Shown here piece after piece: positions 14,007 through 32,188 of a stretch of DNA of 64,000 bases; the first letter of the stretch is position 1, and every line of letters begins with the position of its first letter. The notes below the pieces were generated by a model, which did no database searches, had not been told where the DNA came from, and was given only the letters and a program-made list of their open reading frames with translations. Location: contig CACKFA010000002.1 of the NCBI GenBank assembly GCA_902599335.1, positions 1 to 64,000 on the forward strand. Direction: 5' to 3'. This DNA is from an uncultured Pelagibacteraceae bacterium. Its GTDB lineage: Bacteria; Pseudomonadota; Alphaproteobacteria; Pelagibacterales; Pelagibacteraceae. The translations under genes and the position numbers were made by a program.

Positions 14007-14033
14007 ATTAAATAATATACTCTTAGTAAATAA

Positions 14034-15747: not shown

Positions 15748-15752
15748 TTTTT

Positions 15753-16037: not shown

Positions 16038-16055
16038 ATGTTATTTTGATATGTC

Positions 16056-16091: not shown

Positions 16092-16099
16092 AAAATTTT

Positions 16100-16900: not shown

Positions 16901-16948
16901 TCATTCTCAATCAATAAATATCTATTAGTGGATATGGATCTCTAGTTT

Positions 16949-17428: not shown

Positions 17429-17430
17429 AT

Positions 17431-17877: not shown

Positions 17878-18142
17878 CCCCTCTAGCTTTTTTTAACATT
17901 TTTATTTCATTTTCAATCATTTGAAATTTATGTCGATCACATAAATAACTAAAATACTTCAATGTATTATATGGAAGAAAATAAAGTTTTAAAATTAGGT
18001 TAAGAATAAACTTATCTTTGTAAAATTCTTTTTTTGCCTGCATTTGAAGTTCTTTATGAGTTAATAGCCACCCAAGGTAATTTTTCCATTCATATCTGTT
18101 TTCTAATCTTTCTTTAATTATTTCATCAAGATTATTTTTCAT
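17858..18142 (-). CDS. Hypothetical protein overlapping the Cas4-like nuclease gene
   Basis: A 94-aa protein if translated from the ATG at 18142. That start is chosen because it gives a short 11-nt overlap with the nuclease gene and removes an unlikely N-terminal extension running into that gene. Sequence is mostly charged helices with the aromatic segment LILKLYFLPYNTLKYFSYL near the middle. No recognised domain. Position suggests an accessory partner of the nuclease. Confidence 0.5.
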   Translation of the reverse strand: MKNNLDEIIKERLENRYEWKNYLGWLLTHKELQMQAKKEFYKDKFILNLILKLYFLPYNTLKYFSYLCDRHKFQMIENEIKMLKKARGDEDEQS

Positions 18143-18911
18143 TAGCCATCCTTCCTGCGGACACAAAATAATTACAAGTTTCACATGTTCCATTAGGTTC
18201 AGGTGGTTTATTGTCATGAAGTATATCTAAATATTTTGTAAGAACTTTCATAAAGTTTTTAAGGTCATATTTTACTTCAGTAAATTTGAACGAAAAATCT
18301 ATAGAAATATTATCTGTATTTTTTAGCTGCTCAGGATAGATAAATACAAGACCTAATAAACTTGTTTTATTAATAGTAATTTTCTTTATTTTTTTTAAAG
18401 TTTCCTCAACACTTTTTTTAATTGAATCAGGTTTTTTAGCTCTACTATGTTCAGCTAAAAATTTTTCATCGGTTTCTAAATTTGAATATAATAGACTGTA
18501 ACCATGAAGTTGAGGTTCGTACTCATTGATTTTTTTCTCTAGATCCTTACTAAAATCTTTGCCATTTTTTTCTTTAAACTTAGATGTCTTATAATCAATA
18601 ATACCTGAGGTTCCATCCTCGAATTTAATAATAGCATCCCCTTTTCCTTTAATTCTAAAAAGTCTATTTTTGTTGTCTTTTAAAATTTTAGAAAAAAATG
18701 AAATATTAAATGGATCTATTGTTTCTCCTTCTTTAATATTTTTATCAATTTTTTTTACATCTCCCAAAAAATATTCTTTTTCCATACTGTCTAATGTTTG
18801 TGTCACTCCAGCAGAAATCATTTTGGGATAAAGATTAAAGTTTTTGCCTATGTAAGCACAATGATCGCACACGTATGACAATTCACTAGGGCTAATAGTA
18901 TAAATTTTCAT
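18132..18911 (-). CDS. Cas4-like PD-(D/E)XK nuclease with Fe-S-type cysteines
   Basis: The 259-aa protein has the layout of RecB/Cas4-family exonucleases. An N-terminal cysteine pair CDHC (15-18) precedes the nuclease core: GKGDAIIKF (Asp about 92), GIIDYKTSK (Asp about 106, Lys about 108) and the QLHGYSLLY motif near 134. A second cysteine pair, TCETC, lies near 243-246. Four cysteines flanking the core are typical of the Fe-S cluster of Cas4 and AddB nucleases. No CRISPR array or other cas gene is present, so a phage-type or plasmid-type recombination/replication role is more likely. It follows a ribbon-helix-helix regulator by 4 bases. Confidence 0.8.
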   Translation of the reverse strand: MKIYTISPSELSYVCDHCAYIGKNFNLYPKMISAGVTQTLDSMEKEYFLGDVKKIDKNIKEGETIDPFNISFFSKILKDNKNRLFRIKGKGDAIIKFEDGTSGIIDYKTSKFKEKNGKDFSKDLEKKINEYEPQLHGYSLLYSNLETDEKFLAEHSRAKKPDSIKKSVEETLKKIKKITINKTSLLGLVFIYPEQLKNTDNISIDFSFKFTEVKYDLKNFMKVLTKYLDILHDNKPPEPNGTCETCNYFVSAGRMANEK

Positions 18912-18915
18912 TAGT

Positions 18916-19098
18916 TTAATCTCCCCTCATATTCATAGGAATATTTTCATCTTCTAAGCATTTGTTGTTTACTAAGATCTTAACAACTTGAGCTCTTGAT
19001 AGGGTTACTCCTGGATGTAATGATACTGCTAGTTCTTCAATTTTTTTGTAACAATCGTGATCGATAGCTACAGATTTATACTTAGTTTTGTCTGTCAT
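18916..19098 (-). CDS. Small ribbon-helix-helix-like DNA-binding protein
   Basis: The 60-aa protein has a short beta strand (KYKSVAID) followed by two helices with a turn (CYKKIEELAVSL...SRAQVVKILVNN), the pattern of CopG/Arc-type repressors. It is the first gene of the minus-strand cluster containing the Cas4-like nuclease (4-nt gap). Two palindromes with the core GAAC-N4/5-GTTC lie 12 and 75 bases upstream of its ATG, which fits autoregulation. No toxin partner is recognised next to it. Confidence 0.65.
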   Translation of the reverse strand: MTDKTKYKSVAIDHDCYKKIEELAVSLHPGVTLSRAQVVKILVNNKCLEDENIPMNMRGD

Positions 19099-19109
19099 AT
19101 TTATCTTTC

Positions 19110-19124
19110 CGAACTAAAGGTTCG
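19110..19124. promoter_or_regulatory. Candidate operator palindrome (proximal) for the RHH gene
   Basis: CGAAC-TAAAG-GTTCG is a perfect 5-bp inverted repeat 11 bases before the RHH ATG. Its core recurs at 19173-19186, making it a plausible autoregulatory operator. Inferred from symmetry and position only. Confidence 0.45.
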
Positions 19125-19172
19125 CAAAAGATAAAATTTTTCTTACTGACTTTATACATATATTTACCTCAT

Positions 19173-19186
19173 TGAACCGTAGTTCA
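19173..19186. promoter_or_regulatory. Candidate operator palindrome (distal) for the RHH gene
   Basis: TGAAC-CGTA-GTTCA is a perfect 5-bp inverted repeat sharing GAAC/GTTC half-sites with 19110-19124, centred about 63 bases away. Spacing close to six helical turns would let dimers on both sites contact one another. Confidence 0.45.
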
Positions 19187-19228
19187 TTGGTTAATTTACA
19201 GGCAAATTTTTTATTGGGTCAGAGTACT

Positions 19229-19289
19229 TTCTAGCTTCGAAGAGAACACTTACGCTCAGGTATAAAAACCCCAAGTTCTCCCACTAGAA
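19229..19289. ncRNA. Candidate structured RNA or cruciform, element 1 of the 19.1-19.5 kb gap
   Basis: The 391-base stretch 19099-19489 has no gene. Within it, TTCTAG (19229-19234) pairs with CTAGAA (19284-19289), and GAGAAC (19242-19247) with GTTCTC (19275-19280), nested as one long stem with an internal loop. A small GGT/ACC hairpin is possible in the apical loop. The transcribed strand is unknown and no Rfam family is recognised. Confidence 0.4.
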
Positions 19290-19307
19290 TGAAACGCAAT
19301 TAACTCT

Positions 19308-19366
19308 GGAAGTTACAAATACATACTTTATCAAGTCAGTGAATTTTATATGTATATGTAACTTCC
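19308..19366. repeat. 18-bp inverted repeat (17/18 match), element 2 of the same gap
   Basis: Arms at 19308-19325 and 19349-19366 are inverted copies with one mismatch (GGAAGTTACAAATACATA-type arm), separated by 23 bases. They could form a 17-bp hairpin in RNA or a cruciform in DNA, or be a symmetrical protein-binding or replication site. There is no terminator-like T tract after either arm. The rest of the gap (19432-19495) holds two imperfect copies of a T8-AGGGC-x-CTCTA motif. Confidence 0.5.
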
Positions 19367-19489
19367 AAACAATTAAAAAATTCACTTAATTGATAGTAAT
19401 GATTCTTACAAGCCTTTTCAATATTTAAATTATTTTTTTTTAGGGCATAGCTCTATCCTATACTTTCCTATTTTTTTTAGGGCTCTGCT

Positions 19490-19666
19490 CTAGCTTTTTT
19501 TATTCTTTATTTTAAAACCATTTTTTTCTAAAACATTTATCAGATTCTTGAGCCTTTCATCTCTTGGTGTGTTTTGATCTCCAATGCTCTCAAAAAATAT
19601 AGGTTTTAAACCTTTTTTTTCTTTTGATTTAAAAAAGTTTTTTATTGATTGTATTTTTATTTTCAT
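19490..19666 (-). CDS. Small basic hypothetical protein (58 aa)
   Basis: Minus-strand ATG at 19666 is preceded by a strong Shine-Dalgarno AAAGGAGAAAC, and the frame stays open for 58 codons. The product is very basic (Lys-rich N-terminal half) with a C-terminal helix (DERLKNLINVLEKNGFKIKNKK). Strong ribosome-binding sites are rare in this AT-rich background, which supports translation. Function unknown. Confidence 0.5.
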   Translation of the reverse strand: MKIKIQSIKNFFKSKEKKGLKPIFFESIGDQNTPRDERLKNLINVLEKNGFKIKNKKS

Positions 19667-19759
19667 GTTTCTCCTTTAGCGTTTTATTTTAAGTCCTAGC
19701 AAGTAGAGTTATGTTCTAAATCAAGACTGATTAATTTATATCACACTAAAGCAAAATTA

Positions 19760-19966
19760 CTACTTTTCTGATTTATGATAGTCATGAAAATCACTAATTT
19801 CTCGAAATTTCTTTCTTTCTCTCTGCCATAAATAAAAAAAAATCAGGATTAATAATGGTTGCAAAATAACAAAAATAAGAATGTTAATTAATTCATAAGA
19901 CATACCAGTATGTTCAGCCATAATTTCGAGAACTATTACACACCAATTAAAAAAATCGTTTATCAT
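19760..19966 (-). CDS. Small single-span membrane protein
   Basis: The 68-aa protein has one long hydrophobic helix (about 26-48, INILIFVILQPLLILIFFYLW) followed by a basic, charged cytoplasmic tail. It overlaps the stop of the secreted-protein gene upstream by 4 nt, so both are coupled. Positive charges after the helix suggest an N-out topology. Function unknown. Confidence 0.55.
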   Translation of the reverse strand: MINDFFNWCVIVLEIMAEHTGMSYELINILIFVILQPLLILIFFYLWQRERKKFREISDFHDYHKSEK

Positions 19967-20526
19967 AATTTTTTATCAAAAATCTCTTTGCAAAGCTTAT
20001 TAGCTTCTAATACTGAAGGGACAAGTTTATCGAGTTTCCAGCTATTATTTCGAATATCAAAATATTTACTGGCTTTAAAGTCAATGCCATCAATTATTTC
20101 AATGTCAAATCTTTTTTCCTCAATATAAAAATTGTTTAATTTATAAATATATTCTTTAATTGGGAAAGATCCTAAAGATAGCAATACTCTGTAACCCATC
20201 AAGAATGGCTGAATATGATCGACTTGAGCCGTTACTTCTTCATCATTTATTTTTATTGGTATATTTTTGTTTAATAGTTGTTTTATATCTCCAGGCTGCT
20301 CGTATGTATAAAATGTAAAATTATGCCAAACTTTTTCACAGTTTTCATTAGAATTAATAAAAAAATTTAAACTATCTCCATGTATTACCTCACCATAAAC
20401 CCTTGCAAATACAAGGCTTTCATACTTGTCTATTTTCCATTCTTCTTCAGAAGCTTGGGCTTGATAAGCAAATACAAGAAAAAAAAGAGATAAATGTAAT
20501 AAAATAATAAGTAAAACTCTTTTCAT
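19963..20526 (-). CDS. Secreted hypothetical protein
   Basis: Unrecognised 187-aa protein with a signal peptide (about residues 1-25, cleavage after QAQA) and a beta-rich mature domain with cysteines near 58 and 179. It is in the middle of a three-gene unit whose members overlap by 4 nt on each side (20523-20526 and 19963-19966), so the small membrane protein downstream and the 61-aa protein upstream are probably made together with it. Confidence 0.58.
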   Translation of the reverse strand: MKRVLLIILLHLSLFFLVFAYQAQASEEEWKIDKYESLVFARVYGEVIHGDSLNFFINSNENCEKVWHNFTFYTYEQPGDIKQLLNKNIPIKINDEEVTAQVDHIQPFLMGYRVLLSLGSFPIKEYIYKLNNFYIEEKRFDIEIIDGIDFKASKYFDIRNNSWKLDKLVPSVLEANKLCKEIFDKKL

Positions 20527-20708
20527 GATTTGAGCTCCACTTTAATTCCCTCTTTTTTTAATAGAGAGACTATTTTATCTAATAATAAACTGTGATGGGT
20601 ACTGTTATTGATTTTAAATCTAAAGGTTTGTTTATAAACTGGATCGGAATTGTCATAAGATACAAATGTAGAGACGTGGCAATATTTATAGACCTGGTCT
20701 ATTTCCAT
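20523..20708 (-). CDS. Small hypothetical protein (61 aa), first of a coupled trio
   Basis: Soluble 61-aa protein with a central beta-like stretch (YKQTFRFKINNS) and an amphipathic C-terminal helix. It overlaps the next gene by 4 nt. The upstream region (59-145 bases from the start) contains a potential structured RNA, which would lie in its 5' leader if transcribed from that side. Function unknown. Confidence 0.48.
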   Translation of the reverse strand: MEIDQVYKYCHVSTFVSYDNSDPVYKQTFRFKINNSTHHSLLLDKIVSLLKKEGIKVELKS

Positions 20709-20766
20709 AAATTGTGGCTCCTTCTGTTGGTTGATTTTTTATGAGTTAGTAATTTGTAATTTGAAA

Positions 20767-20854
20767 TGGTTCCACCCCTTCGCTTATCGAGAGGTTTACG
20801 CAACAAGGGAGATAATGAAAATATTCGTAAACGGGCAAAAAGGAGTGGAATCCA
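20767..20854. ncRNA. Candidate structured RNA (unassigned) in the 20.7-21.0 kb gap
   Basis: The 313-base gap 20709-21021 has no gene but contains a closed fold. The outer stem pairs TGGTTCCACCCCTT (20767-20780) with AAGGAGTGGAATCCA (20840-20854), with one bulge and one mismatch. An inner stem pairs GTTTACG (20794-20800) with CGTAAAC (20826-20832). The internal loops are relatively G/C- and purine-rich (CTTATCGAGAGG, AACAAGGGAGATAA) compared with the surrounding AT-rich DNA. I cannot assign a family. Phage-type antisense RNAs and riboswitches should be tested. Strand is undecided. Confidence 0.5.
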
Positions 20855-21021
20855 ATGCATGATTCTATTTAAATCATTAATCTTTGGCTCTACTAAGTCT
20901 GAAATATGTTTTTAAAAAGATCTTGATTTTTTTTTAAATGACAAAATATTGCCATCATCAACTATTAAATTTATAATTGTTAAGGTTCTTTATTCTTAAG
21001 AATACTTTTTCAACTCTAAAT

Positions 21022-21408
21022 ATGAAACAACTAGAATTTGAATTTAATTCAATTGATCTTTCAGATTATTATGTTGCACATCAAGTTATTGATGAAGGAA
21101 ATAATCAAATATTTAGTTGGTCAGATACATTAAGTGATGATGGTAAAAAAATAAGATATCATGAATATATTTATAACACTCCAGATTGTATGGAATTTGA
21201 AAATTGGATTGAAGTAGAAAATAAATGGTTAAATAAATCAACTTTTAAGAAACTCTACGTATACTTAAAATCTCTTGAAAGACATCAAAATAGGCTTGAA
21301 AAAATGAAGAAATGTTTAGAAGAAAAAGATATTCCTTTTGAAGAGGGTGATTGGCAGACAATTGATAGAGATAGAGAAAGAGAAGTAATGAAACATAATT
21401 ACCATTAA
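21022..21408 (+). CDS. Acidic hypothetical protein
   Basis: Unrecognised 128-aa acidic soluble protein starting at the ATG at 21022; an upstream non-ATG start would add 15 poorly supported residues. It has Trp/Tyr-rich segments (IFSWSDTLSDDGKKIRYHEYIY) and a charged C-terminal helix. It precedes the restriction-type operon on the same strand by 120 bases and may be separately transcribed. Confidence 0.52.
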   Translation: MKQLEFEFNSIDLSDYYVAHQVIDEGNNQIFSWSDTLSDDGKKIRYHEYIYNTPDCMEFENWIEVENKWLNKSTFKKLYVYLKSLERHQNRLEKMKKCLEEKDIPFEEGDWQTIDRDREREVMKHNYH

Positions 21409-21527
21409 GCTCACCTAAAAGGCATTATTTAAGGCTGCATAAACTTGTTATGAATTAACATTATAGCATACTAGAATATATCTTGTAAAGTTTTCTGATT
21501 TATATCAAGATTAATTTTAATTTTTAC

Positions 21528-24110
21528 ATGTCTAATTTTAGTGAGAATGAAATAATACCTTTTGCACTTTCAATAATTGAAAATCATGTAGAAGGCATTA
21601 CTACATCAAACTTAATAATTCACTTAAGAGAATTAATGAAACCAGATGGAGACGATTTAGAAATTTTAAATAATAGAAATGATGACAAGTTTAGCCAAAA
21701 AGTAAGGAATTTAAAATCTCACAAAACACTGGAAAATAAGGGTTATGTTAAGTTTTATAATGATAAATTTTTTATTACTGAAAAAGGTATAAAATTTTTA
21801 AATGAAGTGCAGTCAGATACTTTAGATAAAAAATTATTAATCAATATTCATGAAGAAATCCCAATTAGTATAAGAACAAGTAACGTACTAAAAAATCAAG
21901 GAATTATATTTATAGAACAGTTGCTTGAATATACTGAAAAACAATTATTAACATTTCCAGGGGCTGGAACAGGAACCATAAAAGAAATTGAAAATATTCT
22001 ATATGATCTTGGATTTACAATTAATTCAAAAGTAAATTTTAAACTTAGTAATTATAAATCTGAGGAGAATAAAGATCCAAATGAATCAAAATATGAAAAG
22101 AAATTAAAAATTAATATTTTAGATGATTGGCCTATATCAGAGAGAACGTATAATGCTCTCAAAAATGAGGAAATAATTTTCTTGGGAGATTTATTAAGTC
22201 ACAATCTTAAAGATCTTTTAAAATTAAGAAATTTTGGTCGCAAATCATTGAAGGAAATAGAGGAATTTTTGATTAAAGAAGATGTTAAGGATATCTTAGT
22301 AGATCCAGTAATATGGAGTAAAATTAGAAAAGATTTAATTAAAAAAGAAAAAGAAAATAAATTATCTAATATTGAAATCCAAAATAATTTAAGGGGTATT
22401 AGAAAAACTTTATTTAAAGATTTTGAGCGATTTAAAGACAGCTATTTATCTGAAGAAAAAATTATAATTAAACAAGACATTTCAAATGATGCGTTAGAAA
22501 AGTTAATCATAGAAGATATAAATTATGTTTTATCTCTATTCACTGAAAAGATGAATTTAGTTTTCAAAGGTAGATATGGTTATATGCAAAATTTTGAAAC
22601 ACTTGAAGATTTAGGAAAAAAATTTAACGTAACAAGGGAAAGGGTAAGGCAATATGAAAGTGATATTAATAAAACTCTAATTAAAATAGGAAAAATTGAT
22701 AGATTCTCATTAGTTGAATTTTTTAATAAGTATAAATCTATTAGCTTTCATAAATTGTTTCCTCAACTAGATAAAAATTTTACCAACACTTCACACAGTA
22801 ATGCAGGTGGTGACATTACAAGAGACAGATTGGTTGTATTTATGGAGAGTTATTGTGGTGTAAAAGAAAACTATTTTACAACACCTGAAAGAGAACTTTG
22901 GAATTTTGACTCCGAAAGGTTGAAGGAAATTTTTGTTTTTACTCCTGCAGGAGTTTCAACTGATGATTTTATTGAAATTATAAAAGATAATTATGGTTAC
23001 GATGATTTTACTTCAAAATCAGCATTAGAATTTATGAATAAGAAAGAATTTATAAAAATTGTTAATGAAAAAGTATATCCAATTAAAATTAATAAAAATG
23101 AGGAGGTTGCTCATATTTTATTAAATTATCCAGATGGTTTGCATTGGAAAGAAGTTTGCAAGATTGGAAATAAATCTTACACAAAAAATAAGTGGGATTT
23201 AGAGAGAATTGTTGGGGACTCATCACTTTCAATGAATGGCAATCCTCATATTTATTTAATCGATAAGGGTAAACATAGATTGATAAAATATCTATTATTA
23301 GAAGTTGAAGATAAAGATGAAATTATTTCTCTTACTATTAATCTATTAAATGAACTAAATTTAGATCAAAGTGATCTTGAAAAAATTTATAAAAAAATAA
23401 TTGAGATAGAAAAATACCAAAATTTAAAATTTTATAATTTTAGAGCAATTATTAAAATTTTTGGAGAAGAAAAAGGGCTTTATCACACAGGTAAATCTGG
23501 TCAAAATACAATCAGTTTTAATAAAGATATTAAATCTATATCGCTAAAAGATAAAATTAGAGAGATTATTGAGAATTCTAATCATGAAATAAGTCAACAA
23601 GAAATAAATAAAAAGCTTCAAAAATCTAATGAGCAATTACCGTTATCTACCCATCTTGATAGTTTAGAAAATGAAAATGTCATATTTAAAATTAATCCAG
23701 GAATTTATTTAAATTTTAAAGATGCAATCAGACTTTGTGATCAAAGAGAAGTTGAAGAATATTTAGATGAAGTTTTAGATCAATATGAATTTATAACCAG
23801 TGTTTTTATTAGAGAGAAAATAAATGAAGATTTAGGATATGGGCTATCTACATCTTATTATACTTCTCTTGTTAAAGTCTTAGCTAAAGAAAATAATTGG
23901 TATTATGGTAGTAACTATTTGAGTAAAAAATTTAAAAAACAGATGCAGGTTGATCAATATGTTAAGATAAATTACGATGATAGCCTAAGTATAAATGAAA
24001 ATTTTGAAAATTTATCAAAAAAAATTGGTATTTCAAAAATGTATTTCAGTAATATTACACATCAAATGAAAGATACATTTAATACAGATTGGGTTCATCA
24101 AAATGATTAA
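21528..24110 (+). CDS. Multi-domain protein with two RNAP alpha-CTD-like domains and a sigma-70 region-4-like domain
   Basis: The 860-aa protein opens a tight operon with restriction-type genes. Residues about 10-95 look like a winged helix. Two helix-hairpin-helix repeats resemble the RNA polymerase alpha C-terminal domain: about 101-165, and about 192-252 with LLKLRNFGRKSLKEIEEFL, very close to the alpha-CTD DNA-binding motif. Residues about 322-390 match sigma-70 region 4 (ETLEDLGKKFNVTRERVRQYE). The rest (about 450-860) contains further helical or winged-helix-like segments such as EISQQEINKKLQ near 695. This is probably a DNA-binding regulator or a target-recognition subunit; no catalytic motif is visible. 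It overlaps the next gene by 8 nt. Confidence 0.75.
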   Translation: MSNFSENEIIPFALSIIENHVEGITTSNLIIHLRELMKPDGDDLEILNNRNDDKFSQKVRNLKSHKTLENKGYVKFYNDKFFITEKGIKFLNEVQSDTLDKKLLINIHEEIPISIRTSNVLKNQGIIFIEQLLEYTEKQLLTFPGAGTGTIKEIENILYDLGFTINSKVNFKLSNYKSEENKDPNESKYEKKLKINILDDWPISERTYNALKNEEIIFLGDLLSHNLKDLLKLRNFGRKSLKEIEEFLIKEDVKDILVDPVIWSKIRKDLIKKEKENKLSNIEIQNNLRGIRKTLFKDFERFKDSYLSEEKIIIKQDISNDALEKLIIEDINYVLSLFTEKMNLVFKGRYGYMQNFETLEDLGKKFNVTRERVRQYESDINKTLIKIGKIDRFSLVEFFNKYKSISFHKLFPQLDKNFTNTSHSNAGGDITRDRLVVFMESYCGVKENYFTTPERELWNFDSERLKEIFVFTPAGVSTDDFIEIIKDNYGYDDFTSKSALEFMNKKEFIKIVNEKVYPIKINKNEEVAHILLNYPDGLHWKEVCKIGNKSYTKNKWDLERIVGDSSLSMNGNPHIYLIDKGKHRLIKYLLLEVEDKDEIISLTINLLNELNLDQSDLEKIYKKIIEIEKYQNLKFYNFRAIIKIFGEEKGLYHTGKSGQNTISFNKDIKSISLKDKIREIIENSNHEISQQEINKKLQKSNEQLPLSTHLDSLENENVIFKINPGIYLNFKDAIRLCDQREVEEYLDEVLDQYEFITSVFIREKINEDLGYGLSTSYYTSLVKVLAKENNWYYGSNYLSKKFKKQMQVDQYVKINYDDSLSINENFENLSKKIGISKMYFSNITHQMKDTFNTDWVHQND

Positions 24111-24474
24111 AAACCCAAAGTGGAATTATACTGAACTAGTTTTGGCTTTAGAACTTTATATGAATTATAGACCAAATCCTCCTGGTAAAGACTCAAGGGA
24201 AGTGAGTCAATTAAGTTCACTTCTTAGACTAAACGCATTATCAGATGGATTAAGTATCAATAAAATTTTTAGAAACAATAATGGAGTAGCTATGAAACTT
24301 CAAAATTTTAGAAGATTTGATGAAAAATTTAAAGGACATGGTTTAAGAGCTGGTGGAGCACTTGAAAAAATTATATGGGAAAAATACCAAAACCAAACTA
24401 AACTAAAACAAACTTCAAAAAAAATAAGAGATAATATTGAAATAAAAATAAGAGAAAAAATAAATGTCCAATAA
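24103..24474 (+). CDS. Stand-alone McrA-type N-terminal domain protein (no HNH domain)
   Basis: The 123-aa protein matches the N-terminal domain of large HNH endonucleases of the ScoMcrA type: NPKWNYTELVLALELY, NPPGKDSREVSQLSSLL, FRNNNGVAMKLQNFRRFD and GLRAGGALEKIIWEKY, in the usual order. The HNH catalytic part is missing, and no frameshifted continuation appears downstream because the next gene starts inside its end (11-nt overlap). It may serve as a DNA-reading subunit for the ATPase and nuclease that follow. Family recall is from motif memory. Confidence 0.72.
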   Translation: MIKNPKWNYTELVLALELYMNYRPNPPGKDSREVSQLSSLLRLNALSDGLSINKIFRNNNGVAMKLQNFRRFDEKFKGHGLRAGGALEKIIWEKYQNQTKLKQTSKKIRDNIEIKIREKINVQ

Positions 24475-26002
24475 AGAAACAGTAAACATAAGGCCATCAG
24501 TAGGATATTTATCTATACTACAAGCAATTAACTATAGAGCGTGGTATGCAATTGCAGAATTTGTTGATAATTCTCTTCAAAGCTACATTCAAAATAAAAC
24601 TCTTTTAAGAAAAATTCATGGAAGTAATTTTAAATTAAAAATTGCAATTTACGTTACAAAATCGAAAATTCAAATTGTTGACAATGCTGCAGGTATAGGT
24701 GAAAGAGACTTTTCAAGAGCATTTAGGGCTGCAGCTAGACCAGAAAACAGGAAAGGACTTTCTGAATTTGGAATGGGAATGAAAACAGCAGCTTGCTGGT
24801 TTTCAAAAAATTGGGTAGTAAAAACAAAACCATTTGGAGAAAAAGAACTTAAAATAGTAAAATGGGATATTAAAAACATTGTAAAAGATGATTTAGAAGA
24901 GTTAGAGGTTAAAAAAACTTCTTTACCAGCCAATCAACACTATACTGACATTACTCTTACAGATTTAAATAGAATTCCTCAAGGCCAAACAATAAAAAAA
25001 ATGAAAACACACTTAGCTTCTATGTATAGGTGTTTTATAGAAAAGAATGAAATTGAGATTAGATATAATAATGAAAAACTAAAATATGAAAAACCTGAAG
25101 TTCTACAGGCTCCTTATTTTAGAGATATTGATGAACAAAAAAAAAATCCAAAAAAAATTGATTGGACAAAAAAATTTGAGTTTAAATATGGAAGTAAAAG
25201 AAGAACAGCAAGTGGTTATGCAAATATTAGAGAAACAGCATCAACAAAAGAAGCGGGCTTTGCATTATTTAGAAGAGATAGATTAATTAAAGGAGTTGGT
25301 GAAAATGAAGGATATCGACCTTTAGAAATATTTAAAGCTCCTAATAGTTTTATTTACCAAAGAGTATATGGAGAGATTCATCTTGATGATGAGGAAGTAA
25401 CTCACACAAAAGATGATTTTCAATGGACACCTGAAGATGAGAGTGAATTTTTAAAAAAACTAAAACTAGAATTAGAAAAAGAACCAAAACCAATACTTAG
25501 CCAAGCTGATAGGTTTAGAAAGGATAGAAGGAGTAGAGATTTAAGAATTCAGTCAGAAGAAGGATTAGACTCCTCTATTAAAAAGATTCAAGGTAGCATT
25601 GCTGTACTTGAAGATTATAAGCCGCCAAAACAACCTGAAATTTCAAAAAAACTTCCAGAAGCGAAAACTAAGGAAAGAAAAAGAAAAACTGTTCGTTTTG
25701 AGGGGAATGATTGGATAGTAGAGCAAATTTTAAATTATGATAAAGATGAAACTGAGTGGTTAAAAGTTTCTGAAATTGGAAAAAAGAAAAAAGAAATTCA
25801 AATCCAAATTTCAATGACTATGGGTTTCAGTGCACAATATTTTGGTGATCAGCCTGATGAAATAGAAGGCATGTTGCTAATAGCATCTTACATAGCTCTT
25901 GCAGAAGTTGTTGCAAGGAACAGAGGTGATAGTAAAGCACATAATGTAAGATCTTACTTAAATGAAATATTAAGATCTCAACCACCAAATTTAAAATATT
26001 AA
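24464..26002 (+). CDS. MORC/MutL-like GHKL ATPase of a restriction-modification system
   Basis: The 512-aa protein begins with a GHKL ATPase: motif I AIAEFVDNSLQSY (Glu 32, Asp 35, Asn 36), motif II DNAAGIG (73-79) and motif III EFGMGMKTA (101-109). Such ATP-driven dimerising clamps, related to MutL and eukaryotic MORC proteins, are known in bacterial operons with a Z1 ATPase, a PD-(D/E)XK nuclease and a cytosine methyltransferase, exactly the neighbours here. The region after about 390 is charged, then a helical C-terminal domain follows. It probably clamps DNA and gates cleavage; this mechanism is inferred. Confidence 0.87.
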   Translation: MSNKETVNIRPSVGYLSILQAINYRAWYAIAEFVDNSLQSYIQNKTLLRKIHGSNFKLKIAIYVTKSKIQIVDNAAGIGERDFSRAFRAAARPENRKGLSEFGMGMKTAACWFSKNWVVKTKPFGEKELKIVKWDIKNIVKDDLEELEVKKTSLPANQHYTDITLTDLNRIPQGQTIKKMKTHLASMYRCFIEKNEIEIRYNNEKLKYEKPEVLQAPYFRDIDEQKKNPKKIDWTKKFEFKYGSKRRTASGYANIRETASTKEAGFALFRRDRLIKGVGENEGYRPLEIFKAPNSFIYQRVYGEIHLDDEEVTHTKDDFQWTPEDESEFLKKLKLELEKEPKPILSQADRFRKDRRSRDLRIQSEEGLDSSIKKIQGSIAVLEDYKPPKQPEISKKLPEAKTKERKRKTVRFEGNDWIVEQILNYDKDETEWLKVSEIGKKKKEIQIQISMTMGFSAQYFGDQPDEIEGMLLIASYIALAEVVARNRGDSKAHNVRSYLNEILRSQPPNLKY

Positions 26003-26004
26003 AA

Positions 26005-28512
26005 ATGAACTCTATTGTAACTGAAAACACAGAAGATAATTCTGAAACATTAAAAAGATGGACCCCTTTAAGAGAAGGATTGGTTTTTTCTGAATTTATT
26101 AGTAACTGGAAAGAAGACGAGTATGGTGTAGATGAAAAGCTTATACAAAAAGTATCAGATGAATCTGCAGAAATATTGTCAAAATGTGTAGATCCTAAAA
26201 ATACTTCAGAAAAAAATGTTTCAACTGGTCTAGTAATTGGTCAAGTACAAAGTGGAAAAACTTTATCAATGACTGCCGTATCTTCTATGGCAAAAGATAA
26301 TGGATTTGGAATCGTGATTGTTATGTCGGGAAATATTTCATCACTTTCAGGGCAAACAGCAGACAGATTTGAAAAAGCTCTTGGAGGAAGAAACACTATC
26401 CAAATCACAAATAATCCAGAGGGAAATAAATGGGATCCAGAAACTAATTTGATGAATGTTAAAAATGTTTTAGAAAACTTTAATGAGACAGATGATCCTA
26501 ATGACAAAACCACTTTATTGATCGTAACTCATAAAAACCCTGCTAGAATTAATCATATAGTTGATCTATTTGAAAATTTAGGTGATTTAAAAAATAAAAT
26601 TCCAACTTTAATAATTGATGATGAGGCTGACCATCACTCTTTAAATAGTAAAGAATTTTTAAATGATATTAATAACTTATCTGATCGTAGAAAAAGAAGG
26701 ATTAAAGAAATACATCAAATTTCAGAAGGAGATACATTAGAAAGTATTGCAAATGAATTCTCAACCACTGAAGAGAATTTAAAAGAAATAAACAATTTTG
26801 AAACATTGCCCTCTGTTGGAAGCTATATATTAACTGATTATATTCAAACTATAACACACTCATCAATAAAAGATTTAAGATCAAATTTTAATATTCACTC
26901 TTATTTAGGATATACTGCTACACCTCAGGCAATATCACTAATTCCTAGAGTTAATGAATTATCACCAGAATTTGTCCATGTAATTAATACAGGTGAAAAT
27001 TACACAGGTTTAAATTTTTTCTTTCCAAAAGATGGAACTGGAAATTATGTTTGTAGCAAGCATATTGAAAATATTGAAGATGAAATTGAATATAATGATT
27101 TAATATCTGATGACCAAATGCCACCGAGTCTTGAGAAGGCATTACATTATTTTATTTTTAGTGTAGCTATTGGAATTTCTAAAAGTGAGCATAATACAAA
27201 AAAAAATAGATCTATGATTATTCATCCTCATCATTTAAATGAAAAACAAAAAGATTTTTATAATTTTACAATTGGTGTTTTTAGAAATTTAAAAAGTGAT
27301 CTTAAAAATAAGGATGATGTTTCATACGATATTACAACTAAAAAATTAGAGGAAAATTACAACAAATATTTAAAAAAATTTAATACAGAATTTTTTCCAA
27401 ATTTTGATTCAGAATTTATAGAGTTTATTAAAAAAGCAGTAGATAGAATTTCATTACATATAAAATTATTCAATGCAAAAAATACTAAAATTCCAAAACA
27501 AAATTGGAAGGATGCATATGCGAGAATTTTAATTGGAGGTTTTGGGTTAGATAGAGGCTATACAATTCAAGGTTTGACTGTCACTTATTTATCAAGATCA
27601 AAATCTAAACAAGATGATACATTGTTACAGAGAGCAAGATTTTTTGGTTATCATAAAAGTTATAATGATTATGTAAGAGTTTTTTTATCTAGATCTTCAC
27701 AAAATTATTATTCAGAAATATCTGAAATTAATGACAACTTTATTGGATCAGTTAAAAAATTTCAAAATACGGGAAAAAATTTTAAAGAATGGCCTAGAGA
27801 ATGGTGGGGAACAAACGCTGCTAGTCATGAGCTAACTCGACCTGGTGTAAGAAGAGATATAACACTTATGAGATTTAATGGTGACAGACCATTTACCAAC
27901 AAATGGTCTCATCAGCTTTCAATAGATGATTTAAATCAGAATAGAAAAATATGTAATTCTTTATATGAAGATTCTCAAGATAGTTTAAATCAAATAAGCC
28001 ATTTAGATTTAATAAAAAATTCACATAAAACTTGGTGTGGAAATAGAAATATTTTAATTACTGAAAAATTTACAATTAAAGAAATTTATGAAAAATATTT
28101 CAAACATTTAAAATTTCATGAAAATGAAAAAACGAGTTTTGAAGTTGTGGCTCAAAATTTAGCAGGATACGTATCAAAAATACCTAACTTTAGATTACCA
28201 GTTATGTTTATGTATATAAATGAAGAGGATCCAAACATCGGTAATAGGATGATAGGTAAAAATGGTGCTATCCAACCATGGCGTGGTAGAGATCAAAAAG
28301 ATAATTTTCCTGGAGATGCAGTTTTACACTATGATTATTTGATTGGAGCCACTGAAAATAATATTGGTATAGATAACTTAACTCTAAAAATTAATTTATT
28401 TAAGAAAATTTTAAATAGAGATGGTAGTGAAATGAGAAAAGATGTACCTTACTTCCATTTTGTTCCTTCAGTAAAAATTTGGACAGATTACATAAAAGGT
28501 ATTTATAAATAG
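26005..28512 (+). CDS. Z1-type superfamily 2 ATPase with LysM-like insertion
   Basis: The 835-aa protein carries helicase-type motifs: Walker A GQVQSGKT (79-86), Walker B IIDDEADHH (203-211), motif III YTATPQ (303-308) and a C-terminal RecA-like lobe with GGFGLDRGYTIQGLTVTYLSR and LLQRARFFGYH, where Z1 proteins have their arginine motif. It is the motor of MORC/Z1 restriction systems. Unusually, residues about 237-278 between motifs II and III read as a LysM domain (ISEGDTLESIANEFSTTEENLKEINNF). It starts 2 bases after the ATPase gene and shares one base with the nuclease start. Confidence 0.87.
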   Translation: MNSIVTENTEDNSETLKRWTPLREGLVFSEFISNWKEDEYGVDEKLIQKVSDESAEILSKCVDPKNTSEKNVSTGLVIGQVQSGKTLSMTAVSSMAKDNGFGIVIVMSGNISSLSGQTADRFEKALGGRNTIQITNNPEGNKWDPETNLMNVKNVLENFNETDDPNDKTTLLIVTHKNPARINHIVDLFENLGDLKNKIPTLIIDDEADHHSLNSKEFLNDINNLSDRRKRRIKEIHQISEGDTLESIANEFSTTEENLKEINNFETLPSVGSYILTDYIQTITHSSIKDLRSNFNIHSYLGYTATPQAISLIPRVNELSPEFVHVINTGENYTGLNFFFPKDGTGNYVCSKHIENIEDEIEYNDLISDDQMPPSLEKALHYFIFSVAIGISKSEHNTKKNRSMIIHPHHLNEKQKDFYNFTIGVFRNLKSDLKNKDDVSYDITTKKLEENYNKYLKKFNTEFFPNFDSEFIEFIKKAVDRISLHIKLFNAKNTKIPKQNWKDAYARILIGGFGLDRGYTIQGLTVTYLSRSKSKQDDTLLQRARFFGYHKSYNDYVRVFLSRSSQNYYSEISEINDNFIGSVKKFQNTGKNFKEWPREWWGTNAASHELTRPGVRRDITLMRFNGDRPFTNKWSHQLSIDDLNQNRKICNSLYEDSQDSLNQISHLDLIKNSHKTWCGNRNILITEKFTIKEIYEKYFKHLKFHENEKTSFEVVAQNLAGYVSKIPNFRLPVMFMYINEEDPNIGNRMIGKNGAIQPWRGRDQKDNFPGDAVLHYDYLIGATENNIGIDNLTLKINLFKKILNRDGSEMRKDVPYFHFVPSVKIWTDYIKGIYK

Positions 28513-29477
28513 TGTTAAAAGATTTATTTGATAAAATTGAAATCCCAAATGACACTCAAGAAGATTCATATAATACTAAAGAGATTTTTAAATCAAATCA
28601 TCGATTAGGTAAAAATTTAAACAACGAGCCATCATTACTATTTAAAACTCAAGATAACAATGTAAATCAAGTAGATTATTTAGGAAAATATATTCATTTG
28701 AGATTTAATGTTAAATGCACATTGAACGAAAAAAATAAAAAAGTGAGTGAAAATTACACTATCTTAACATGTATATCAGAGGACGATTATACAAAAAAAA
28801 TATTTTTAGAAATTTGTGAAAGTACATATTTAAATATTGGTGAGTTACCATCAAACAACGAAATAATAGAATTGACGCAAAGTTTGATAGAATTATTTAA
28901 AAGTTGGTCTACAAATGTTACTGATTTTATTGGTTTATGGGGAGAATTATTTTTAATTGTTAGCAGCAGTAATCAAATAAAATGTTTGGAAGCATGGCAT
29001 GATCATAATGAAGATAAATATGATTTTTATGACAATAGTTCTGCTTTAGAGGTAAAATGTACTACTAAAAATGACAGAAAACATGAATTTAGACATCATC
29101 AACTAACAAGCAATTTAGATGATCATTTCATAGCATCTGTTTTAACAAAGCCAGACCAATCTAAAGGATTAAGTGTTTTTGATTTATATAAAAAAATTTT
29201 AAATAAAAAAATTAATTCAACACAAAAAAATAAATTAAATAAAATTTATTATAGTATTGTGAAAGGTACTCCTGAAAATTTGATAAACACACAGAAGTAT
29301 GATTACGATTTTGCTAAAAAAAATCTTATGTATTTTAAAGTTTCAGATATAAGCACTTTGAAAAATAATGATCAATCAATTACAAATATCAAATACACTA
29401 TGGATTTATCTCAAAAACAAAATTTAAGTGAATTACCCCAAAATGAGTTTATCTCTTGCTTATATTTTTCTTACTAA
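28512..29477 (+). CDS. PD-(D/E)XK nuclease of the MORC/Z1 restriction system
   Basis: The 321-aa protein starts with GTG overlapping the Z1 stop. The nuclease core is visible as GLWGELFLI (Glu about 145), then DKYDFYDNSSALEVKCTTK, giving Asp about 171 and E-x-K at 180-182, the standard metal-binding set. This architecture corresponds to the PD-(D/E)XK motif proteins that accompany Z1 ATPases. It would make the double-strand cut on unmodified DNA. Its 3' end overlaps the convergent methyltransferase gene by 29 nt. Confidence 0.82.
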   Translation: MLKDLFDKIEIPNDTQEDSYNTKEIFKSNHRLGKNLNNEPSLLFKTQDNNVNQVDYLGKYIHLRFNVKCTLNEKNKKVSENYTILTCISEDDYTKKIFLEICESTYLNIGELPSNNEIIELTQSLIELFKSWSTNVTDFIGLWGELFLIVSSSNQIKCLEAWHDHNEDKYDFYDNSSALEVKCTTKNDRKHEFRHHQLTSNLDDHFIASVLTKPDQSKGLSVFDLYKKILNKKINSTQKNKLNKIYYSIVKGTPENLINTQKYDYDFAKKNLMYFKVSDISTLKNNDQSITNIKYTMDLSQKQNLSELPQNEFISCLYFSY

Positions 29478-30726
29478 ATAAATTTTTTGCTATTTTTGAT
29501 ACAACTTCAACATTCACTGCATTTCCGATTGCTGCATAAAAATCATCATGTGATCTTGGATAACTCTTTATTCCTCTAAAACCTTGAATATTTAAACACT
29601 CTTCATGTGATAAATATCTTTTTTTCCAAGGCAAGTATGGAATTTGTGAAATTGAAGATGAAATTAAAGTTGGTGAATTATTATTTCTTTTAACTCGTAC
29701 ACCAGAGCCTCTAAATGATACAATTTTTTTTCTAAGATTAAAATTATCTCCTTGGCAATTCCACTCTAGCTTCTGATAAGCCTCAAACTCAAGGTCAATT
29801 ATTTTTGTTAAAAATTTATCTATCCATTTTTTATTTTTTTCATAAAAAACTCTAGTTCTTTTGATCATTTTTATTTTCCAGTTAGGAAATTTATTTTGTT
29901 TTGTTCGTGCATATCTGGGTATCAACTCTAATATTTCTTCTTTATCATTTTTATTTAAACTTCTACCAAATGAACCTTTGAATTTTTTTAACTCATTTTT
30001 TTTTGAAGCGAATGGTGTTTTGTCTTCAAAGGGGTATGTTGCTCCAAACTCCATGGCCCATATTGGATTGGGAAGATAACTATCTTTTGGTACTTTTTTT
30101 AAAAATTGCTTCCAAACACCAAGAACTTTCTCTCTTTTTTCAGTCAAAACCTTGTTTCTTTCAGGTGACTTAATAAGAAATTTTTTTAAATTTGGTTTTG
30201 CTTTACTTTTTTTAGGCCACTCAAAGTCTCTTAGACCATCAAGTTTACCAACTATGTAAAGTCTATCTCTAGTTTGAGGAATTTTAAAATCAACTGGGGA
30301 TAACACTTTTTGATCAATATCATAGTTTAATTTTGCAATCTTTCTTTTCATAAATTCCCATGTTTTTCCATCATTGTGTGAAAGTAAATTAGGTACGTTT
30401 TCTAAAAATAAATATTTTGGTTTATGATATTTAATTATTTTCAATAAATAAAAAAACATTTTTCCAGCTACTGAATGATCAAATCCATTTGCTAAACCAG
30501 CTTTTGAAAATGGCTGACAAGGAAAACCTGCGCATAAAATTTCATGTTTAGGAATATCTTTTATATTAATTTTTGTAATATCTCCTTCTGGATATAGCTC
30601 AAAATTCTTTTCATAATGATTTCTTAAAAAAGTCTCTATCTCGCTAGCAAATACACATTCGTGACCTAGCTTACTTAGAGCTAAGTGAAATCCACCCAAT
30701 CCAGCAAATAAATCAATAAATTTCAT
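29449..30726 (-). CDS. DNA (cytosine-5)-methyltransferase (Dcm family)
   Basis: The 425-aa enzyme has all major C5-methyltransferase motifs: I DLFAGLGGF (residues 4-12), IV GFPCQPFSKAG with the catalytic Cys near 69, VI ENVP near 110, VIII QTRDRLYIVG near 149, a target-recognition region with basic stretches between about 180 and 350, and IX/X HEECLNIQGF ... YAAIGNAV near 400. It would protect host sites from the co-encoded nuclease. It is transcribed towards the restriction operon, tail to tail, so its expression has a separate promoter near 30730-30810. Confidence 0.93.
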   Translation of the reverse strand: MKFIDLFAGLGGFHLALSKLGHECVFASEIETFLRNHYEKNFELYPEGDITKINIKDIPKHEILCAGFPCQPFSKAGLANGFDHSVAGKMFFYLLKIIKYHKPKYLFLENVPNLLSHNDGKTWEFMKRKIAKLNYDIDQKVLSPVDFKIPQTRDRLYIVGKLDGLRDFEWPKKSKAKPNLKKFLIKSPERNKVLTEKREKVLGVWKQFLKKVPKDSYLPNPIWAMEFGATYPFEDKTPFASKKNELKKFKGSFGRSLNKNDKEEILELIPRYARTKQNKFPNWKIKMIKRTRVFYEKNKKWIDKFLTKIIDLEFEAYQKLEWNCQGDNFNLRKKIVSFRGSGVRVKRNNNSPTLISSSISQIPYLPWKKRYLSHEECLNIQGFRGIKSYPRSHDDFYAAIGNAVNVEVVSKIAKNLFSKKNISKR

Positions 30727-30814
30727 AATTTAAGGAATCAACTTATCTTATCATAAATATATTTAAAAATAATGAATTTGAAATTCATAATATAGTTTAT
30801 TAACATACATATAC

Positions 30815-31378
30815 ATGAGAGTTTGTGACTATTGTGGAAATAATATTGCAGAAGGCAGATTAAAAATATTTCCAAATACAAATCTATGTTCAGCAAAATG
30901 TGTTAATGAAATTAAAGATAGTTACGAAGAAGTTCAAAAATCAATAGCATTAGCAAATAATGATCTTACAGAAGAATTTGTTGGATACATCAAATCTGGT
31001 TCACCAGATAAAAATATATCGAGTAAATTTTCTAACTTTAAAAAATTTAGGGAAAGCTTTCCCAAAGAGTATGAACCAGTTTTAAAAGAATTATCATATA
31101 GAAAATATACTACTATAAGAGCATATAATGATTATTTGAATGATGAAATAAGTGAAAATGAATATATCGTCAAATTTAAAAGGTTTACTTGGTGGATAAA
31201 AGAAAAAGTAGAAAGTATTAACGGTTATCTGATTGACAATCCAGCTAACTACACTCATTGCAAAAAATGTGGAAATTTATCTTTAGTTCAATGGACTCCT
31301 AAATATCAGAAATATTTTATTGGTTGTTCAAATTTTAAAAATGGTTGTAAATGGATAAAAACTATCTGGATAATGTAA
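30815..31378 (+). CDS. Small protein with DksA-like and topoisomerase-type zinc fingers
   Basis: The 187-aa protein has a four-cysteine finger at its N-terminus (C4, C7, C25, C29 in CDYCGNNIAEGRLKIFPNTN, then LCSAKC), with spacing and the R-L-x-x-x-P pattern similar to the DksA/TraR zinc finger. A second finger lies at the C-terminus (HCKKCG ... FIGCSNFKNGCKWIK), similar to the C4 zinc ribbons of bacterial topoisomerase I. The middle is helical and charged. It diverges from the methyltransferase gene across an 88-base gap. DNA or RNA polymerase contact is inferred. Confidence 0.65.
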   Translation: MRVCDYCGNNIAEGRLKIFPNTNLCSAKCVNEIKDSYEEVQKSIALANNDLTEEFVGYIKSGSPDKNISSKFSNFKKFRESFPKEYEPVLKELSYRKYTTIRAYNDYLNDEISENEYIVKFKRFTWWIKEKVESINGYLIDNPANYTHCKKCGNLSLVQWTPKYQKYFIGCSNFKNGCKWIKTIWIM

Positions 31379-31420
31379 ATTTCGTCAAATTATTGACATC
31401 AAGTTAATACATGATTAATC

Positions 31421-32023
31421 ATGAAAATTAACAACTTAATTAACATATCCTCATCAATACTTCACTCCACTTACTCTAAATCATACACAATAATTTATGA
31501 TCAATTTAATGAAGCAATTAAAGTGCCTAAAAAATGGGTTGAGGATATCAAGCACGTAGAATTTAATGAATTGCTTGCAAGTTCTATTGGTCCACTGGCA
31601 TTATTTTTTAATTGGAAAAAAAGACATAAAGAAGAATTTTCTGAAATAGCATCCGGTGCTTTAGCCTCAAGTTTTGCTCATGGTGATCCAATTGGAACTA
31701 TAACCTCTGTAGTAGTTCTTGCTTATCGATACAATCAATCAACGAATAAACAAGAAATGAGAAATCTTAAATGGGGTATTATCAAAGGGGGTGCAAGTGT
31801 GAGTGCATTTGCTTTAACTGTTAAAGCTATGGGTGTTTCATTACTTAGTTTTTTAGTGGGTTTATGCATTGCTGTAGTTGTGAGAAAGAGTGTTTCTACT
31901 CTAAGACTTTATGAATATTTAAAATTTATTAGATCTCTAAAAGTAAAAATACCAAAATTTAAAAAAAGGATATCTAGAAGAGACTTTATATCACTCAAAA
32001 TTTTTGAATTTAAAAACGCATAA
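31421..32023 (+). CDS. Hypothetical protein with small-residue-rich hydrophobic segments
   Basis: Unrecognised 200-aa protein at the right end of the island. It has Ala/Gly/Ser-rich hydrophobic stretches at about 85-103 and 125-155 (GGASVSAFALTVKAMGVSLLSFLVG) that could insert into or associate with a membrane, and a strongly basic C-terminus (KVKIPKFKKRISRR). It starts 42 bases after the zinc-finger gene. Function unknown. Confidence 0.52.
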   Translation: MKINNLINISSSILHSTYSKSYTIIYDQFNEAIKVPKKWVEDIKHVEFNELLASSIGPLALFFNWKKRHKEEFSEIASGALASSFAHGDPIGTITSVVVLAYRYNQSTNKQEMRNLKWGIIKGGASVSAFALTVKAMGVSLLSFLVGLCIAVVVRKSVSTLRLYEYLKFIRSLKVKIPKFKKRISRRDFISLKIFEFKNA

Positions 32024-32050
32024 AAATTTAAAACTGTTTTAACAATTAGG

Positions 32051-32074
32051 TTTGTTGGTAAATAGTTGGTAAAT
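32051..32074 (+). repeat. TTGGTAAAT repeat array, right end of island (2 copies)
   Basis: Two perfect TTGGTAAAT copies start at 32055 and 32066. The whole 24-base block is identical to 16056-16079. It sits 74 bases inside the right attachment repeat, much as the left array sits 95 bases inside the left one. Confidence 0.8.
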
Positions 32075-32147
32075 TTTTGTTAAAAAAAAAGTTCTTCTAA
32101 AAAGGCTTATTTTCAATACTAATTTAAGATATTTTTTTAGATAATAA

Positions 32148-32188
32148 ATTATGAGTGTACTGCTCTAACCAACTGAGCTACAGGCCCT
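32148..32188. repeat. Right attachment repeat: displaced 5' half of the tRNA(CAU) gene
   Basis: Identical to 12531-12571. It encodes only the tRNA 5' half up to the anticodon loop (minus strand) and then diverges, so it cannot give a functional tRNA. It is the original chromosomal 5' end, left next to tRNA-Val and rpoD when the island entered. If its old promoter is still active it would make a truncated tRNA-like transcript reading into the island. Confidence 0.9.

What the first reader, a model, noticed from the sequence alone, without database searches (positions are those of the whole stretch)
21528..30726. Expanded MORC/MutL-Z1 restriction-modification system with extra regulatory or targeting proteins
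GHKL ATPase, Z1 ATPase, PD-(D/E)XK nuclease and C5 methyltransferase match the restriction-modification class described with MutL homologues and MORC origins (Iyer, Abhiman and Aravind). Two additional genes are translationally coupled at the front: an 860-aa transcription-factor-like protein and an orphan McrA-N protein. All five plus-strand genes overlap or nearly touch, arguing for one complex or pathway.
Basis: partly seen in the sequence, partly recalled or inferred. Interest (0 to 1): 0.8.

Follow-up and report, generated by a model that had tools for sequence, protein, structure and literature searches.

The report
MORC-Z1 restriction island with DNA readers
A 20-kb piece of foreign DNA parked beside a tRNA gene in a small bacterial genome carries a known type of virus-cutting restriction system, with two extra proteins attached that look like DNA binders and whose families turn up beside other kinds of DNA-restriction genes.

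Summary
The genes are real and intact. C-F (GHKL ATPase, Z1 ATPase, PD-(D/E)XK nuclease, C5 methyltransferase) meet the sequence features that Iyer et al. 2008 give for their third MORC operon type: a new member of a known restriction-modification kind. They lie in a 19.6-kb island inserted in tRNA-Met, flanked by 46-bp repeats; 11 of 15 relatives have an empty site.

A (two alpha-CTD-like domains, sigma region 4, winged helix) resembles MzaA only through sigma region 4, so this is not MZA. Relatives of A follow an Mrr-type helicase-nuclease in gammaproteobacteria; a more distant one follows Dnd genes in a same-genus genome. B is a domain usually fused to an HNH nuclease, sometimes beside a C5 methyltransferase.

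I favour A and B as DNA-reading add-ons to the restriction machine; a regulatory role for A is not excluded. Tight packing is no evidence for a complex: 16 of 26 same-strand gene pairs outside the island are equally tight.

The parts
12572..32188 (.). Genomic island inserted in tRNA-Met; tRNA-Met and tRNA-Val are 51-74 bp apart in 11 of the 15 same-genus stretches where both were found
12526..12571 (.). Left 46-bp repeat, overlapping tRNA-Met (12494-12570, minus)
   Evidence: 45 of 46 bases equal to the right copy
32143..32188 (.). Right 46-bp repeat (tRNA-Met fragment), next to tRNA-Val (32244-32318, minus)
21528..24110 (+). Gene A, 860 aa: two RNA polymerase alpha-CTD-like stretches, sigma-70 region 4, then a long region with a winged helix near residues 671-735
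   Evidence: Pfam; fold matches to sigma region 4 and winged helices; model mean pLDDT only 49
24103..24474 (+). Gene B, 123 aa: stand-alone all-helical domain that elsewhere mostly precedes an HNH nuclease domain
   Evidence: AlphaFold2 mean pLDDT 89, five helices
24464..26002 (+). Gene C, 512 aa: prokaryotic MORC-type GHKL ATPase with the MORC S5 motif GFALFRRDRLI at residue 265
26005..28512 (+). Gene D, 835 aa: DEAD-Z1 ATPase; Walker A GQVQSGKT (79), DDEAD (205), DTLLQRARFFG (538)
26656..26850 (+). LysM-like insert in gene D (about residues 218-282), absent from the 14 other Z1 proteins aligned
   Evidence: Pfam LysM 25.5 bits, cut-off 20.9; alignment
28512..29477 (+). Gene E, 321 aa: DUF4420 PD-(D/E)XK nuclease, catalytic residues present
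29449..30726 (-). Gene F, 425 aa: C5-cytosine DNA methyltransferase with PCQ and ENV motifs

Best explanation
A horizontally acquired island carries a MORC-Z1 restriction-modification system with two extra DNA-reading proteins. Shown: intact genes, motifs, island ends, empty sites in relatives. Inferred from the families: F methylates host cytosines. C (MORC clamp or looping ATPase) and D (DEAD-Z1 motor; in the related CglI system the Z1 protein hydrolyses ATP fast and works with its nuclease) move or remodel DNA, and E cuts unmodified invading DNA. Inferred with less confidence: B, a domain freed from its usual HNH nuclease, and A, an array of DNA-binding domains without a recognised enzyme domain, help the machine recognise its target or sense foreign DNA.
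For: Core: Pfam hits; MORC S5 motif, Z1 DThhQXuRhFG motif, E-D-ExK residues and PCQ/ENV motifs all present; five other dcm-GHKL-Z1 operons, four of them with DUF4420, with C at 35-41% and F at 44-46% identity. Island. A as a restriction-associated protein: relatives sit 1-4 bp behind, or overlap by 11 nt, an Mrr_cat-ResIII gene in 7 of 7 loci (four species) and in both E. coli chromosomes inspected; an alpha-CTD/sigma4 protein follows DndBCDE in G012. B: an HNH domain in the same ORF in 17 of 22 relatives, a C5 methyltransferase-like gene next door in 6 of 22, a Z1 gene in the locus in 2 of 22. CglI precedent: passages of PMC4267653.
Against: Five other core operons lack A and B and presumably work without them, so the core should have its own target reading. 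A was found beside Z1/MORC nowhere else in the stretches searched. Pfam does not detect alpha-CTD in the gammaproteobacterial relatives (only a weak helix-hairpin-helix match, 0.0097, in one), and the G012 relative aligns with A only over the alpha-CTD/sigma part. In the one plasmid copy inspected the relative has no helicase next door. Tight packing is usual here. That A or B binds DNA at all is inferred; nothing was tested at the bench.
Confidence: 0.55

Rival explanations
1. A is a transcription regulator of the operon: its sigma region 4 and alpha-CTD-like domains bind the promoter and/or RNA polymerase and switch restriction on after methylation or during infection; only B and C-F act on invading DNA.
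For: A is the first gene; its recognisable domains are those by which sigma and alpha contact promoter DNA; 119 bp without a listed gene lie upstream.
Against: In the gammaproteobacterial loci the relative is the downstream gene of its pair. The upstream regions of A and F share no stretch longer than chance (8-9 nt; 95% limit of 300 composition shuffles 11). Promoter-like sites over 20500-31500 are at chance level (74 found, 72.9 expected), so they say nothing either way. A has no sigma region 2 or 3 by Pfam, so it should not replace sigma.
Confidence: 0.3
2. Side-by-side cargo: C-F are a complete restriction-modification system, and A and B are separate defence genes, or remnants of one, that landed next to it in the same island.
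For: Core operons elsewhere lack A and B; relatives of A and B belong to other restriction modules; overlaps of this size are common in this window.
Against: A and B are intact, co-directional with C-E, and A-B and B-C overlap. No Mrr/ResIII helicase or HNH protein of their own was recognised among the 17 of 19 island ORFs (100 aa or more) scanned with Pfam.
Confidence: 0.25
3. A member of the MZA system (MzaABCDE) in which AIPR was replaced by a methyltransferase and A is MzaA.
For: NCBIfam MzaA, MzaB and MzaC models hit A, C and D at 3e-10, 3.5e-6 and 1.1e-29.
Against: All scores are far below the curated cut-offs (39.6 of 800, 25.7 of 850, 103 of 1500, MzaD 12.7 of 420). The MzaA match covers only residues 297-393, the sigma region 4 part; the same model matches 396 of 398 genomes at E <= 1e-20 (own genome's best 1.6e-122), as ordinary sigma factors would. 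No AIPR match among the 17 of 19 island ORFs scanned with Pfam.
Confidence: 0.03

Closest known systems
MORC / SFII-Z1 / RE-fold / DCM operons, third type (Iyer, Abhiman and Aravind 2008, PMC2292703)
   Same: The core proteins and the published MORC, Z1 and E-D-ExK motifs
   Different: F is convergent at the end, whereas dcm is first and co-directional in the five other operons found here; A and B are added in front; D carries a LysM-like insert
Z1 + PD-(D/E)XK + cytosine methyltransferase putative defence system (PMC9523054, 2022)
   Same: The three core genes; a MORC-family gene and a putative transcriptional regulator are associated with its type II
   Different: Its type II has an AIPR protein, not found here; whether its regulator resembles A could not be seen (figures not held)
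CglI / NgoAVII (PMC4267653, passages)
   Same: C5 methyltransferase, DEAD-Z1 ATPase and a separate nuclease
   Different: CglI has a PLD nuclease with a B3 domain and three genes, no MORC; here the nuclease is PD-(D/E)XK and Pfam shows no reading domain in it
E. coli pair: Mrr_cat-ResIII-HNH_repeat helicase + 816-aa 'sigma factor-like HTH' protein
   Same: The 816-aa protein is related to A over residues 306-837 (22%, E 6e-17) and has sigma region 4
   Different: Different effector; no MORC, Z1 or methyltransferase gene annotated beside it
PglW of type 2 BREX (PMC12839542, passages)
   Same: An alpha-CTD-like domain followed by winged helices in a restriction system
   Different: PglW also has NERD and kinase domains and an iSTAND; no homology to A beyond generic domains was shown here
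MZA system (NCBIfam MzaA-E)
   Same: GHKL, Z1 and PD-(D/E)XK proteins and a sigma-related protein
   Different: The MzaA model looks like a nearly whole sigma70 (positions about 230-716 of 726 match most genomes); A has only region 4; no AIPR

Membership tests
MORC-Z1-RE-DCM restriction-modification operon (Iyer et al. 2008, type 3) | GHKL ATPase with the MORC S5 motif GhXhhpXXRhl | tested here: met
   GFALFRRDRLI at C265; pattern also in 5 of 5 related C proteins
MORC-Z1-RE-DCM restriction-modification operon (Iyer et al. 2008, type 3) | SFII helicase with C-terminal DThhQXuRhFG motif | tested here: met
   DTLLQRARFFG at D538, Walker A at 79, DDEAD at 205. The closest relatives miss the exact pattern, with Q at the second h
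MORC-Z1-RE-DCM restriction-modification operon (Iyer et al. 2008, type 3) | RE-fold protein with E-D-ExK residues | tested here: met
   DUF4420 hit; GLWGEL, YDF and LEVK aligned with four relatives, one of which has DVK
MORC-Z1-RE-DCM restriction-modification operon (Iyer et al. 2008, type 3) | DNA methylase in the neighbourhood (frequent) | tested here: met
   C5 methyltransferase F, PCQPF and ENV
MORC-Z1-RE-DCM restriction-modification operon (Iyer et al. 2008, type 3) | Restriction and methylation activity | not testable with these tools
   needs expression, methylation calling and phage plating
MZA (MzaABCDE) | MzaA, MzaB, MzaC, MzaD at equivalog level | tested here: not met
   39.6/800, 25.7/850, 103/1500, 12.7/420 bits
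MZA (MzaABCDE) | AIPR protein (MzaE) | tested here: not met
   no AIPR match among 17 of 19 island ORFs of 100 aa or more scanned with Pfam
Sigma-70 factor | Regions 2 and 4 in one protein | tested here: not met
   only region 4 found in A by Pfam
PglW-type sensor proteins | alpha-CTD-like domain followed by winged helices and iSTAND | tested here: inconclusive
   alpha-CTD and one confident winged helix in A; PADLOC PglW hit 0.015 for A and 1.2e-10 for the G012 relative, both over generic domains; most of the model is low confidence
McrA-type HNH endonuclease | HNH nuclease domain | tested here: not met
   B has only the domain that lies N-terminal of HNH in relatives; no HNH by Pfam

The most novel reading that the evidence does not exclude
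A belongs to a so far unnamed family of large 'alpha-CTD + sigma region 4 + winged-helix' proteins that act as exchangeable DNA-sensing or targeting subunits for unrelated restriction effectors: MORC-Z1 here, an Mrr-ResIII helicase-nuclease in gammaproteobacteria, and possibly the Dnd system in a same-genus genome. In this island such a protein and a reading domain detached from an HNH nuclease were recruited together to a MORC machine.
Probability: 0.35. Interest if true: 0.65.

Novelty: new variant of a known kind. Interest (0 to 1): 0.45.

Why it matters
As far as I know (recall), how MORC-containing restriction systems find their targets is open; Iyer et al. propose prokaryotic MORCs as the source of eukaryotic MORC proteins. 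A natural version with two extra, separable candidate DNA-reading proteins would make target choice testable by gene deletion. The A-type protein beside other restriction effectors, including an E. coli gene pair that can be studied in laboratory strains, points to a possible shared sensing module made from RNA polymerase parts.

Tried and rejected
A as MzaA: first suggested by PADLOC and NCBIfam; rejected, where the MzaA model matched 396 of 398 genomes, as ordinary sigma factors would, so A's hit is only sigma region 4.

Tight packing as evidence for a complex: rejected by the control.

More relatives of A: none in viral contigs or, with the plasmid relative as query, in phages; none but itself in 398 genomes at E <= 1e-8 and in 339 at E <= 1e-6; the plasmid search with the G012 relative found none at 1e-12. 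In one search, 58 of 61 genomes matched A, but apart from the window and G012 the listed matches cover only the alpha-CTD or sigma region 4 stretch, as rpoA and rpoD would. One of the seven loci (L096) has a C5 methyltransferase-like gene about 4.8 kb downstream; no C, D or E relative was found in the seven.

Single-sequence viral scans for B and D: none; B relatives were found only with an alignment. PDB sequence searches for B, its profile and C gave nothing usable; D matched only LysM domains and one weak unrelated chain. Fold searches with B's good model found no credible match (best VIA Z 3.9, rmsd 2.5, 51 residues), which does not show that the fold is new. A's model is poor outside residues about 316-410 and 670-850, so its middle and N-terminal parts are untested.

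An integrase: not recognised by Pfam in 17 of 19 island ORFs of 100 aa or more, by PHROGs in the 10 given, or by NCBIfam or PADLOC in the two left out of Pfam. A shared operator of A and F: none above chance. The att region against phages gave 2106 records; the ten listed overlap a tRNA-Met or an unnamed gene. No tRNA in the three stretches around the G012 Dnd genes except far to one side.
Full report
WHAT IS THERE. A-E are on the plus strand and F is convergent on the minus strand. Pfam identifies two RNA polymerase alpha-CTD stretches and sigma region 4 in A, a GHKL ATPase in C, Z1 in D, DUF4420 PD-(D/E)XK in E and a C5 methyltransferase in F; B has no Pfam match.

THE CORE IS A KNOWN KIND. 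Iyer et al. 2008 (PMC2292703; abstract and three sections read) describe MORC operons whose helicase carries DThhQXuRhFG and whose RE-fold partner carries E-D-ExK, with cytosine methylases frequent. The window meets each point: GFALFRRDRLI in C, DTLLQRARFFG in D, E-D-ExK in E, PCQ and ENV in F. The closest relatives of D miss the exact helicase pattern by one position. In 398 genomes of the phylum, 12 (the window's own included) had a D match at E <= 1e-15; flanks were fetched for the other 11. Three of these carry the close core in the order dcm-GHKL-Z1-DUF4420 (one split over two contigs), and so do two of the three plasmids inspected out of 41 plasmid records with a D match; one of these two plasmids shows no DUF4420 match. 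That makes five other core operons. The other eight genomes have more distant Z1 genes. None of these stretches has A or B by phmmer at E <= 0.01. A 2022 paper (PMC9523054; one section read) predicts a defence system of Z1, a PD-(D/E)XK 'DUF4220' protein (as printed; presumably DUF4420) and a cytosine methyltransferase, so the core is in print twice.

THE ISLAND. rpoD-side stretches were fetched from 19 of the 36 same-genus genomes. In 15 of the 19 both tRNA-Met and tRNA-Val were found; in 11 of these they are 51-74 bp apart, in 4 they are 0.9-3.9 kb apart. In the window they are 19.7 kb apart. A 46-bp repeat (45 of 46 equal) overlaps tRNA-Met at 12526-12571 and recurs at 32143-32188. L061 has the empty site; of its 12 matched left-flank genes nine are 82-99% identical to the window's and the three nearest the site 63-73%, and rpoD is 94%. 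GTTGGTAAAT occurs 7 times in the window against 0.21 expected, with copies near both island ends; I read these as integrase arm sites (inference). No integrase was recognised.

GENE A. The MzaA hit is the generic sigma region 4. Relatives over residues 306-837 are an 816-aa E. coli/Salmonella plasmid protein (3 of 72,556 plasmid records, 22%, E 6e-17), whose gene matches in 83 of 5,426 E. coli genomes (73 with at least 80% of it). A scan of 84,980 named genomes gave 7 loci from four species; four loci are from one Thorsellia assembly and may be copies. In 7 of 7 the gene follows or overlaps an Mrr-ResIII helicase gene (Pfam domains checked in two), as in both E. coli chromosomes inspected; in the inspected plasmid an IS1 precedes it instead. 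Four of these relatives, one per species, have sigma region 4 by Pfam but no alpha-CTD. In G012, same genus, a 641-aa protein with two alpha-CTD stretches and sigma region 4 follows DndB, DndC, DndD and DndE on the same strand, 6 nt after DndE; PbeA lies nearby. It aligns with A only over the alpha-CTD/sigma part, so kinship beyond these common domains is not shown. The structure model supports sigma region 4 (about 316-400) and a winged helix at 671-735 and is poor elsewhere.

GENE B. Relatives: 8 of 72,556 plasmid records (three inspected), 5 of 398 genomes including the window and 15 viral-contig loci. Of the 22 loci examined (3 plasmids, 4 genomes, 15 viral), 17 carry an HNH domain in the same ORF (3 by Pfam, 2 by eye, 12 by a residue pattern), 6 have a C5 methyltransferase-like gene next door (phmmer with F, E from 2.9e-22 to 5e-5; two of these, L115 and L116, look like close copies), and 2 have a Z1 gene in the locus. 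Flank lengths differ, so these are lower bounds. B has only the shared domain, predicted as five helices (pLDDT 89), with no credible fold match.

HOW IT MAY WORK. In CglI the nuclease protein binds the recognition sequence, and the Z1 protein hydrolyses about 176 ATP per second per monomer; the authors suggest translocation before cleavage (PMC4267653, passages). By analogy D is the motor, E the cutter, F the protector and C the looping ATPase proposed by Iyer et al.. Pfam shows no reading domain in E. B, a domain detached from HNH nucleases, and A, made of DNA-binding domains where recognised, are candidates for added target reading. PglW of BREX, with an alpha-CTD-like domain and three winged helices, has been proposed as a sensory hub (PMC12839542, passages). 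The strongest objection is that other core operons lack A and B.

PRINT CHECK. Searches for MzaA/Z1/AIPR/MutL, MORC/Z1/DUF4420, sigma factor-like/Mrr/helicase, PglW/phosphorothioate, four E. coli protein accessions, MZA, and sigma-HTH/MORC/DndF listed no paper whose title or abstract start is about the A family; the listed papers were not all read, and the library holds open-licence papers only. In passages, PMC10853773 mentions a sigma-related HTH inserted in some DndH proteins, PMC12137116 a GHKL-nuclease Shedu protein, and PMC12458937 held none of the terms MORC, Z1 domain, MZA or sigma factor.

Noticed in passing
window 26656-26850 (gene D residues about 218-282): A LysM-like, normally sugar-binding, insert in a Z1 ATPase (Pfam 25.5 bits), absent from 14 other Z1 proteins aligned; binding of sugar-modified phage DNA is a free guess.
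   Followed up: partly
window 12664, 16059, 16070, 16082, 27891 (minus), 32054, 32065: Seven GTTGGTAAAT repeats (0.21 expected), clustered near both island ends and at 16.06 kb, like integrase arm sites; the inner cluster may mark a composite island.
   Followed up: partly
window 31421-32023 and L049 17372-17983: A 200-aa gene at the island's right end is 85% identical to a gene about 2.8 kb beyond the Dnd genes of a same-genus genome, at another chromosomal place: possibly a shared mobile-island gene.
   Followed up: partly
L090 6771-11451, L091 6771-11451: E. coli two-gene unit near ydeT (and hipA in L091): Mrr_cat-ResIII-HNH_repeat helicase plus 816-aa sigma4 protein; the latter matches in 83 of 5,426 E. 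coli genomes. Looks like a type IV-like restriction pair that my searches did not find in print.
   Followed up: partly
L095-L098: The same helicase-sigma4 pair occurs on four contigs of one Thorsellia anophelis assembly: repeated copies or an assembly effect.
   Followed up: no
L094 1805-6714: Psychrobacter plasmid with Z1, PLD nuclease and C5 methyltransferase genes (CglI-like) next to an HNH endonuclease carrying the B domain.
   Followed up: partly
window 12702-20526: Left part of the island: PrsW protease and MORN-repeat protein, a weakly RecB/Cas4-like protein at 18132-18911 (phrog_298 exonuclease 2.9e-5) and several unknown genes; no integrase recognised.
   Followed up: partly
window 30815-31378: 187-aa protein with a borderline N-terminal TraR/DksA-type zinc finger and a weak C-terminal topoisomerase-type zinc ribbon match.
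   Followed up: no
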